From: Cryptobacterium curtum DSM 15641
Lineage (GTDB): Bacteria; Actinomycetota; Coriobacteriia; Coriobacteriales; Eggerthellaceae
Reading direction: 5' to 3'
NCBI RefSeq assembly: GCF_000023845.1
Contig: NC_013170.1
Span: 1,094,501-1,158,500 of the forward strand
Length of the DNA: 64,000 bases
Made by a program: the position numbers and the translations under genes. The first letter of the stretch is position 1. The number at the start of each line of letters is the position of its first letter. Shown piece after piece: positions 27,637-31,332 of the stretch. The notes under the pieces are model-generated. The model worked only from the letters and a program-made list of their open reading frames with translations. It did not search any database and had not been told where the DNA came from.

Positions 27637-28296
27637 ATGGCTCAGAAAATAGGAACGGTATTTTCCATTGCACAAGACAACCCACCCGTGCCCGGATGCA
27701 CGGTATCTTCCATTGTTTATGCAGCTGAAGCGGGGTCGGTGCTGTACTTTTCGCTTGCCCCGCAGACCGATATCAGTGCAGAAACCTATGGCTACCATAA
27801 GCTGATCCATGTTGAATCAGGAGCGCTGAGCGTTTTTACCCACGCGGGAGAGCACTGGGATGTGTCTGAGGGCCAAGTTATCCTCACACCGACAGACATT
27901 CCGGTTGGCATGCGATCAACCGAAGGATGCGTGTATACAGAAATCGAAATACGAAAGGAAACCGCGATGAACGACGTATTGAAACCAGGCGAAGTGCTCA
28001 AGCTTGCTGATCTCCTCCCCTATCAGGAAGGCAAGATCGTCAACATGGACTTGGCACATAACGACACCATGAAATTTGTTCTCATGAGTTTCGATGCCGG
28101 GTGCGGGCTCTCTGAACATTCTGCCCCTGGAGAAGCCTTGATTTTCGCTCTTGATGGCGAAGGCATCATCGGTTACGAAGGTCAAGAGCATGTTATCAAG
28201 GCAGGCGAGAACTTCAAGTTTGCGAAAAATGGCAAGCACTATGTAAAGGCAGAAAAGCCGTTCAAGATGGGCCTGTTGTTGTTGCTTTCAGAATAA
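27637..28296 (+). CDS. Double-cupin protein
   Basis: A 219-residue cytosolic protein with two beta-barrel cupin halves: residues 10-105 (ending HVESGALSVFTHAGEHWDVSEGQVILTPTDIPVGM) and 120-219 (FDAGCGLSEHSAPGEALIFALDGEGIIGYEGQEHVIKAGENFKFAKNGKHYVKAEKPFKM). The second half has the His and Glu of a metal site (SEHSAPGE). The second half begins MNDVLKPGEVLKLADLL, like stand-alone anaerobe cupins, so the gene looks like a fusion or duplication. The function is unknown. It sits between secY and adk, transcribed in the opposite direction. Confidence 0.8.
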   Translation: MAQKIGTVFSIAQDNPPVPGCTVSSIVYAAEAGSVLYFSLAPQTDISAETYGYHKLIHVESGALSVFTHAGEHWDVSEGQVILTPTDIPVGMRSTEGCVYTEIEIRKETAMNDVLKPGEVLKLADLLPYQEGKIVNMDLAHNDTMKFVLMSFDAGCGLSEHSAPGEALIFALDGEGIIGYEGQEHVIKAGENFKFAKNGKHYVKAEKPFKMGLLLLLSE

Positions 28297-28712: not shown

Positions 28713-29996
28713 CTACTTAAAGAAACCGTCGTAGTTGTACATCTTCAGCTGCGATTCAATCTTACTCATCGTATCAAGCGCAACGCCGATCATAATAAGG
28801 ATCGACGTGCCGCCAAATGTTTGAATAAGCTGGTTATTCGTAAACACAAAGAGAATGGATGGCACAACCGCAACCGCACCGATAAACATAGCGCCAGGAA
28901 GCGTTACGTGGCGGATAACATTCTTGATATAGGTCACGGTCGCTGAACCAGGACGAATACCAGGGATAAAGCCGCCTTGCTTGCGCAGGTTATCGGAAAG
29001 CTCTTCGGGATTGAACACCATCGACGTATAGAAATAAGCGAAGAAGATGATCAATCCGAATGTCATGATCCAGTTCAGCCAACCACTTGAAATCGCATTT
29101 GCAAAGACTTCAAGCCAGTCAACATTGAACAGAGCAGCAATCTGAGCGGGGAAATAAATTAAGCAACTCGCAAAGATAATGGGAATAACGCCCGCGGCAT
29201 TCACCTTCAGTGGAATGTAAGTGGACTGCCCGCCCATCATTTTACGACCCTGCACGCGTTTCGCGTAGCTTACCGGGATACGGCGCTGCGCGCGCTCCAT
29301 GAAGATAATCGCCGGGATGCAAATAGCAACCACAACGAGAATCAGCAACGTGATAGCCAGCCCCATACCAGCATCATCTTGGCTCGTTCCACTCGAGAAA
29401 ATAGCTGATGGAACACGAGAGACAATACTCGTAAAGATGATAAGTGACATACCATTACCGATGCCGCGCTGCGTAATAAGCTCGCCCATCCACATGATAA
29501 AGGCGGTGCCAGCTACCAGAGTAAACACGATAAGAATACTGGTAAGGGCATACGGTACTTGGTCAGAAAAGACCACGCCATAGCGAGCAGACTGGAACAG
29601 CAGCAGGTAACCAACCGCATTGAGCAGGCCCAAAGCAAGGGTCAGCCAACGAGTGGTCTGCGTGATCTTTTTACGGCCCGGTTCACCCTCTTTAGCCCAG
29701 CGTCCGACCGCAGGTACAACACCCTGCATAAGTTGCATGATGATTGAAGCGGTAATGTAGGGCATGATACCCAGCGCAAAGACACTGAAGTGAGACAGGG
29801 CACCACCGGAAAACACGTCAATCATCGTCATAGCCGCACCACCCGCTTGCTCGTATGCCTGAGCGAACGAAGCGAAGGGAATGCCCGGTACCGGGATAAA
29901 TGATCCAAGACGGTACAGGGCAAGAATTGCCAGCGTAAAGAGAATCTTGTTGCGTAGCTCCGGTACTTTAAATGCTTCTACCAGGGACTTTAGCAA
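28713..29996 (-). CDS. secY: Protein translocase subunit SecY
   Basis: SecY forms the protein-conducting channel. The 427-residue protein has ten membrane segments and family segments [28 protein letters not shown], and the cytoplasmic loop around [23 protein letters not shown]. The start is TTG, overlapping the rplO stop (TTGCTAA), which implies translational coupling to rplO; the resulting N-terminus [21 protein letters not shown] fits other SecY proteins. It is the last gene of its transcript. Confidence 0.97.
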
Positions 29997-30439
29997 GGCA
30001 GCTCAACCTTTCCTCCGGCTGCCTCAATCTTCTTGGCAGCACTTGCGGAAACCTTATCAACCTTAACCGTAAGGGCCTTCGTGATTTCACCGTCACCGAG
30101 AACCTTCACGAGCGCATCCTCGTGCTTGATAATGCCTGCTGCAACTAAGGCTGCATTATCAATAACAGAACCCGCCTCGAATTTAGCTTCGAGACGCGAC
30201 ACGTTGACGGGCACATATTCTACGCGATTAATATTGCGGAAGCCCGGGAGTTTAGGCAGACGCATATACAGAGGAGTCTGACCACCCTCGAAACCGGGAC
30301 GCTTACCGCCACCAGAACGAGACTTCTGGCCATTCAAACCACGACCAGCAGTTTTACCCTTACCAGCTGCATGACCACGTCCAACACGTGTACGCTGCTT
30401 GCGCGAACCCGCTGCCGGGGTGAGATCCTTTAGTTCCAT
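29990..30439 (-). CDS. rplO: 50S ribosomal protein L15
   Basis: 149-residue L15 with the basic glycine-rich N-terminus ([31 protein letters not shown] in outline) that threads into 23S rRNA. ATG at 30439 with AAAGGAG upstream. Its stop overlaps the secY TTG. A 175-base hairpin chain separates it from rpmD, unusual for the spc operon. Confidence 0.96.
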
Positions 30440-30462
30440 AAGTGCACTCCTTTTGCGCTGAT

Positions 30463-30599
30463 GCACGACACATACCGTCGTGCCTGCTGGCAGCTCGCCG
30501 CCAGCTAACTACCATTGTGGCTTTCAAAAAGCCACAGGGCAGGTAAGCCATTTGTATAGCTCGCCTGCCCCACCCCGCACGGGAAAACGTACCATGCGG
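30463..30599 (-). ncRNA. Chain of five hairpins between rpmD and rplO (structured leader)
   Basis: Five inverted repeats lie end to end: 30463-30483 (GCACGAC/GTCGTGC, perfect), 30486-30505 (GCTGGC/GCCAGC), 30516-30536 (TGTGGCTTT/AAAGCCACA, perfect), 30537-30570 (GGGCAGG/CCTGCCC) and 30575-30599 (CCGCA/TGCGG). Almost no base is left unpaired between them. They end 23 bases before the rplO ATG. An autoregulatory or processing role is inference. Confidence 0.6.
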
Positions 30600-30614
30600 A
30601 GAAATTACCTTACT

Positions 30615-30806
30615 TTAAGCCTCGGTAACCTCAACCAGATGCTTGACCTTAAAGATCATGCCGCGGGTTGATTCGTTATCAGGCAGATCGCGTTCTTTAC
30701 CGATACGGCCAAGACCCATACCTTTAAGAGTACGTTCTTGCGTGGCGGGACGGCCGATCGTGCTACGAACCTGCTTGACATGAAGCATTTTTTGCTTGCT
30801 CGCCAT
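30615..30806 (-). CDS. rpmD: 50S ribosomal protein L30
   Basis: 63-residue L30 (KMLHVKQVRSTIGRPATQERTLKGMGLGRIG...), normal length for bacteria. The ATG at 30806 follows GGAAGGAG in the rpsE tail, four bases after the rpsE stop. It is followed by the hairpin chain. Confidence 0.95.
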   Translation of the reverse strand: MASKQKMLHVKQVRSTIGRPATQERTLKGMGLGRIGKERDLPDNESTRGMIFKVKHLVEVTEA

Positions 30807-30810
30807 GCTG

Positions 30811-31332
30811 CTACTCCTTCCAGCCATAAATCTTGCTTACCGATAAGCCGCGGCGTGCTGCAACGTCCTCAGGGCTTTCCATAGCCTTGAGTCCCTCGGC
30901 GGTTGCCTTAACAACATTCATCACGTTGTCGGTGCCCAGCGACTTAGCAAAGACGTCTTTTACGCCAGCGAGTTCCATGACAGCACGGGCAGCACCACCA
31001 GCGATAACGCCTGTACCAGGAGTTGCTGGCTTGATGAGCACACGCCCTGCGCCATACGTCCCAATGATTTCATGAGGGAGCGTACCCTCAGCAGTCAGCG
31101 GAACCTTAAACATGTTCTTTTTTGCGTCTTCAATACCCTTGCGAATAGCAACAGGCACTTCCTGGGACTTGCCCATGCCAATGCCCACATTGCCGTTGCC
31201 GTCGCCAACAACCACCAAAGCAGTGAGGCCAAAACGACGACCACCCTTGACTACCTTGGAAACGCGGTTGATATAGACGACACGTTCCTGCAGTTCAGGC
31301 ACGTCGGACTGATGTTCTTGCTTACGAGCCAT
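30811..31332 (-). CDS. rpsE: 30S ribosomal protein S5
   Basis: 173-residue S5 with the double-stranded-RNA-binding N-domain ([45 protein letters not shown] in outline) and the C-terminal fold with [27 protein letters not shown]5 takes part in decoding fidelity. AGGAGAGG precedes the ATG. It follows rplR directly in spc order. Confidence 0.97.

What the first reader, a model, noticed from the sequence alone, without database searches (positions are those of the whole stretch)
30463..30599. Five back-to-back hairpins between rpmD and rplO
In the middle of the spc operon, where spacers are normally a few bases, 137 bases fold into five consecutive stems with almost no unpaired linker, three of them perfect. 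No T tract follows, so it is not a simple terminator. A new r-protein leader (ligand L15, L30 or SecY regulation), an RNase site or a transcript stabiliser are candidates.
Basis: partly seen in the sequence, partly recalled or inferred. Interest (0 to 1): 0.6.

Follow-up and report, generated by a model that had tools for sequence, protein, structure and literature searches.

The report
Conserved RNA leader before gene rplO
Two of the five hairpins form a conserved RNA structure placed just before the gene for ribosomal protein L15 across most Coriobacteriia; it is absent from the public RNA-family library and probably acts as a feedback switch by which L15 limits its own synthesis.

Summary
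The hairpins are real, on the minus (mRNA) strand (z -6.2). The two nearest rplO, H4 (30486-30505) and H5 (30463-30483), belong to a conserved RNA motif: AGUY, a covarying stem capped by the near-invariant loop GGCGAGCN, a hairpin of free sequence, GCGA, Shine-Dalgarno, rplO ATG. A covariance model finds it in 137 of 296 sampled genomes of the class, essentially once per genome. All 80 listed exact GTDB-wide matches (of 104) lie 33-81 nt upstream of rplO. Covariation is strong: 91% of cells pair against 75% shuffled; 192 double-sided changes against 65. Outside the class the phylum sample gave only four weak hits inside coding genes. Rfam 15 has no match and the papers read name no such leader. 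H1-H3 are not conserved in sequence. The only ribosomal-protein gene common to all leader operons examined is rplO, so the likeliest ligand is uL15 acting as a translational feedback repressor; ligand and mechanism are inferred. Some lineages lack the motif, with rpmD-rplO spacers of -1 to 12 nt.

The parts
30463..30483 (-). H5: 8-bp hairpin of free sequence, second conserved element of the leader
   Evidence: fold; all 6 modelled pairs of this helix change on both sides across 89 sequences
30486..30505 (-). H4: recognition hairpin GCUGGC-GGCGAGCU-GCCAGC with near-invariant loop
   Evidence: the part of the spacer that finds relatives by BLASTN; loop conservation in 130 sequences; stem covariation
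30506..30510 (-). conserved unpaired AGUU(A) element before H4 (AGUU in Eggerthellaceae, AGUC mostly elsewhere)
   Evidence: column counts over 130 sequences
30448..30460 (-). AGCGC (AGCGA in most relatives) followed by AAAAGGAG, the Shine-Dalgarno of rplO
   Evidence: sequence and spacers of relatives
30448..30515 (-). whole match to the class-wide leader model R1 (44.9 bits)
30517..30535 (-). H3: hairpin upstream of the leader core; relatives often carry an unlike hairpin at the same place
   Evidence: fold; 60 of 75 long spacers fold with z below -1.5 there; not conserved in sequence
30536..30571 (-). H2: long interrupted hairpin, seen only here; its inner arm holds TATACA (30559-30554), at the distance where many family members have TATAAT
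   Evidence: fold; -10 spacing in relatives; no promoter or terminator passes the scan here
30573..30601 (-). H1: hairpin after rpmD, seen only here
   Evidence: fold; no conserved counterpart found
29993..30439 (-). rplO (uL15), the gene directly downstream
   Evidence: ORF; protein matches in 58 of 60 relatives
28713..29996 (-). secY, next gene, behind rplO in all loci whose gene order was examined
   Evidence: TIGR00967; gene order
30615..30815 (-). rpmD (uL30), upstream gene
   Evidence: TIGR01308

Best explanation
The spacer carries a ribosomal-protein leader RNA specific to Coriobacteriia. Shown: H4 and H5 form a conserved covarying RNA structure, essentially once per genome, just upstream of the rplO start codon, with near-invariant loop and single-stranded letters typical of a protein-binding site. 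Inferred: free uL15 binds H4 with its flanking AGUY and GCGA elements and hinders initiation at the adjacent Shine-Dalgarno and AUG, so that rplO, and the coupled secY, are repressed when uL15 exceeds rRNA. No terminator-like structure lies between motif and gene and the Shine-Dalgarno is not sequestered by default, so control at translation is likelier than attenuation. In many Eggerthellaceae a sigma-70-like promoter, sometimes with a terminator before it, has been set between rpmD and the leader, making rplO-secY a transcription unit of its own; in most other families the leader appears to be an internal element of the long spc transcript.
For: Class-wide occurrence at one position; exact-motif scan of 84,980 species genomes, 80 of 80 matches checked at 33-81 nt before rplO. 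Covariation: 91.3% of cells paired against 75.2% in shuffles, 11 of 14 pairs with double-sided change, 192 such cells against 65, covariation score 0.372 against 0.138 (0 of 500), slid controls 18-61% paired; independent anchor-based count in 130 sequences. Loop GGCGAGC near-invariant while stem letters change. rplO and secY are the only genes behind the leader in every locus examined: in the window and G003 just these two, in G012, G028 and G008 with adk, in f11, f12 and f15 followed further on by map, infA, rpmJ, rpsM, rpsK, rpsD; since the motif stays with rplO and does not appear elsewhere in those genomes, S4 is disfavoured and uL15 favoured. No terminator; Shine-Dalgarno unpaired probability 0.53 against 0.50 shuffled. 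A TAnAAT-like -10 element in 31 of 62 family members, mostly about 40-54 nt before the leader, against 2 of 63 in other families.
Against: No ligand or expression data were available. The leader model finds no match in the organism's own 16S or 23S, and the shared heptamer GGCGAGC is no more frequent there than chance (P = 0.22), so binding-site mimicry is not shown. Neither a stable switch conformation nor a sequestered Shine-Dalgarno is predicted. The downstream rule for naming the ligand is uncertain: secY is always there too.
Confidence: 0.6

Rival explanations
1. Same leader, different protein ligand: S4 (rpsD) or another protein, with rplO-secY as an early point of control over the downstream genes.
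For: In f11, f12 and f15 rpsM, rpsK and rpsD follow in the same gene run; own 16S holds an exact GGCGAGC in the 530 region near the S4 site (site from general knowledge).
Against: In the Eggerthellaceae loci examined and in the window the rpsD block is not behind rplO-secY, yet the leader stays with rplO and gives one match per genome. The heptamer match is not significant.
Confidence: 0.12
2. Conserved translation-initiation or mRNA-stability element without a specific protein ligand, for instance an enhancer of rplO translation or a processing boundary inside the long spc mRNA.
For: H5 is a hairpin of free sequence right before the Shine-Dalgarno and lineages can lose the element; unlike hairpins recur upstream.
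Against: The near-invariant GGCGAGCN loop and AGUY and GCGA letters over the whole class imply specific recognition; a stabiliser would need shape only.
Confidence: 0.2
3. A cis-RNA sensing something linked to SecY or secretion rather than to the ribosome.
For: secY is next in every locus examined.
Against: rplO, not secY, is directly downstream; no motif was found in front of other genes.
Confidence: 0.05
4. Chance or mutational hairpins (dispersed repeats, terminator remnants).
For: H1 and H2 have no conserved counterpart.
Against: Single copy in the genome, no U tract, class-wide covariation of H4-H5. Remains possible for H1 and H2 only.
Confidence: 0.02

Closest known systems
Ribosomal-protein leaders (r-leaders), e.g. 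the L31 Coriobacteria and L17 motifs of Eckert and Weinberg 2020 (PMC7247131)
   Same: Structured, covarying RNA in front of an r-protein gene in one bacterial class; ligand named by downstream gene
   Different: None of their 20 motifs is upstream of bacterial rplO (their eL15 is the archaeal protein); no Rfam 15 match
S8 operator in the E. coli spc operon (at rplE)
   Same: Regulatory RNA inside the spc operon, acting at translation, in the middle of the transcript (reviewed in PMC10931766)
   Different: Other position (rpmD-rplO), other sequence, other bacteria; S8 is encoded upstream of this element
Intrinsic terminators and dispersed palindromic repeats
   Same: GC-rich inverted repeats between genes
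   Different: No U tract at H1-H5; single copy; conserved loop letters

Membership tests
Ribosomal-protein leader | Consistently located directly upstream of an r-protein gene | tested here: met
   80 of 80 exact GTDB matches checked lie 33-81 nt before rplO; class search
Ribosomal-protein leader | Conserved RNA secondary structure with compensatory changes | tested here: met
   11 of 14 pairs change on both sides, 91.3% paired, slid controls 18-61%
Ribosomal-protein leader | Lies in the transcribed 5' UTR (mapped start site or RNA-seq) | not testable with these tools
   Only promoter-like sites upstream in many Eggerthellaceae; no transcript data
Ribosomal-protein leader | Binds an r-protein encoded by the operon and lowers expression | not testable with these tools
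   needs binding and reporter assays
Ribosomal-protein leader | Resembles the ligand's rRNA site (present in some leaders, not all) | tested here: inconclusive
   R1 finds nothing in own 16S or 23S at E up to 1; GGCGAGC occurs twice, chance P 0.22
Known Rfam 15 family | Score above the gathering threshold of any of 4227 models | tested here: not met
   on the window; on five relatives, one sub-threshold Spot_42 match elsewhere
Intrinsic terminator | GC-rich stem followed by a T run | tested here: not met
   none in 30430-30830
Dispersed palindromic repeat (REP-like) | Many copies per genome | tested here: not met
   one full copy; the best partial match lies in a coding gene

The most novel reading that the evidence does not exclude
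A previously undescribed, class-wide RNA family that is the first bacterial leader controlled by uL15, sitting inside the spc operon and, in Eggerthellaceae, joined to a new promoter so that the operon is split at rpmD/rplO and SecY supply is tied to uL15 feedback.
Probability: 0.5. Interest if true: 0.7.

Novelty: new member of a known kind. Interest (0 to 1): 0.6.

Why it matters
[quoted passage not shown] subtilis and other species is described as unknown, and regulation of its last genes, including secY, as unclear (PMC10931766). This gives a defined RNA of about 65 nt, with loop and stem changes already sampled by evolution, in gut genera such as Gordonibacter, Adlercreutzia and Paraeggerthella, which makes that question directly testable and adds uL15 as a candidate autogenous regulator.

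Tried and rejected
Copies elsewhere in the genome: only a 26-nt partial match inside a PriA-like coding gene (gene name mine). Terminator and promoter scans of the window: none. Rfam at relaxed threshold: none. Matches outside the class: four weak ones, all in coding genes. Helix closing AGUU with AAGC: not supported, letters next to GCGA do not follow. Long-range pairing of AGUU with rplO codons 2-3, suggested: complete in 45 of 66 Eggerthellaceae-like sequences but not kept in the same register in the others, so not claimed. rRNA mimicry: inconclusive. Default sequestration of the Shine-Dalgarno: not seen. Literature on the rRNA contacts of uL15 gave nothing usable.

Full report
What is there. 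The window lies in a 1,617,804-bp single-contig genome; size and gene content fit Cryptobacterium curtum (Eggerthellaceae, Coriobacteriia), a name I infer from memory (lineage). The spc operon runs on the minus strand. Linkers are 1, 0, 11 and 2 nt. No intrinsic terminator or consensus sigma-70 promoter passes the scan and no Rfam family matches.

Which part is conserved. A BLASTN of the spacer against 100 related genomes mainly hits with one 25-30 nt stretch, H4, at 86-100% identity and, for the strong matches, just upstream of rplO. Spacers from relatives show one architecture: AGUY, a hairpin with loop GGCGAGCN, a hairpin of free sequence, (A)GCGA, AAGGAG, ATG. H1, H2 and H3 have no sequence counterpart, though many relatives have an unlike strong hairpin directly before the leader core, where H3 is here (60 of 75 long spacers with z below -1.5).

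Distribution. A covariance model built from 15 sequences finds the motif in 137 of 296 genomes of the class at E up to 0.1, one place per genome but for one second weak hit without rplO (L155). Among the weak matches one lies away from the rplO start (L139). The motif occurs in the own family, in some sister families and in many families outside the own order, so it is probably ancestral in the class. Sampled loci from families f2, f3, f4, f5, f7 and f10, and one genus of the own family (L178), have rpmD-rplO spacers of -1 to 12 nt, with no room for it. Two further genera of the family have long spacers with a degenerate motif or none (L036, L179). In a sample of 296 genomes of the phylum, hits outside the class number four, are weak, and lie in coding genes. 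An exact-pattern scan of one genome per species for 84,980 species returned 104 stretches; the 80 listed bear titles of Coriobacteriia or their families and genera, or unresolved Actinobacteria, Actinomycetes or bacterium, bar one labelled Aeromicrobium, and all 80 sit 33-81 nt upstream of rplO.

It is an RNA. On an alignment of 89 distinct leaders, 91.3% of cells form standard pairs against 75.2% in shuffles; 192 cells carry double-sided changes against 65; the covariation score is 0.372 against 0.138, with 0 of 500 shuffles reaching it; sliding the partners by 1-3 columns leaves 18-61% paired. The alignment was fitted to the structure, which favours it, and relatedness is not corrected for, so I also counted H4 pairs from an anchor without any structure model: 120-129 of 130 sequences pair at the six stem positions with C-G/U-A and other exchanges, while loop letters stay nearly fixed. 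The seventh pair, G-U in about half of the sequences, is a mismatch in most of the rest and should be read as part of the loop. H5 folds better than shuffled sequence in nearly all cases (mean z -2.3).

How it most likely works. Near-invariant loop and single-stranded letters on a covarying stem point to specific recognition by a protein. Gene order narrows the ligand: behind the leader come rplO and secY in every locus examined; further genes differ by family (genes named by sequence signatures there; rpmD, secY and adk in the window by NCBIfam). rplO is the only r-protein gene common to all, and the motif does not move with rpsD, so uL15 is the best candidate; this is inference by a rule like that used by Eckert and Weinberg (PMC7247131). 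No terminator lies between leader and gene and the Shine-Dalgarno is about as open as in shuffled sequence (0.53 against 0.50), so I favour repression of translation by bound protein over attenuation. In Eggerthellaceae half of the leaders have a TAnAAT-like element, mostly 40-54 nt upstream, against 2 of 63 in other families, and some spacers carry terminator-like hairpins with T runs before it (e.g. L016, L020). In the window only TATACA (30559-30554), inside H2, sits at that distance, without a -35, so a promoter there is uncertain.

Known or new. Rfam 15 has no match for the window or, at this motif, for five relatives. The table of Eckert and Weinberg lists an L31 leader for Coriobacteria but none at bacterial rplO; the survey of 50 genomes (PMC11109978) does not mention rplO or L15 in its main text. 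The held library lacks most subscription journals, so an earlier report cannot be ruled out. As a kind this is an r-leader candidate; binding and regulation, the features that would complete membership, could not be tested here.

Noticed in passing
window 27637-28296 (+): A cupin-like ORF on the opposite strand lies between secY and adk, which in several relatives are adjacent, so the operon is interrupted here (cupin reading is mine; NCBIfam gave no family).
   Followed up: partly
G000:C1:1026784-1027406 (outside the window): Three adjacent pieces matching the 3' part of 23S rRNA, besides the two complete copies; a partial copy or remnant.
   Followed up: no
L269 (JADIIM010000025.1): A MAG titled Aeromicrobium sp. 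carries the Coriobacteriia leader; its contig length equals that of G134:C35, a genome of the class, so the title is probably wrong.
   Followed up: partly
Eggerthellaceae leaders, e.g. L008, L019, L027: A strong hairpin with GGCGYGCC arms recurs between the -10 element and the leader core in several genera; its role is unknown.
   Followed up: partly
window 30507-30510 and rplO codons 2-3: AGUU can pair with AACU at the start of rplO; complete in 45 of 66 Eggerthellaceae-like sequences, not kept in other families.
   Followed up: yes
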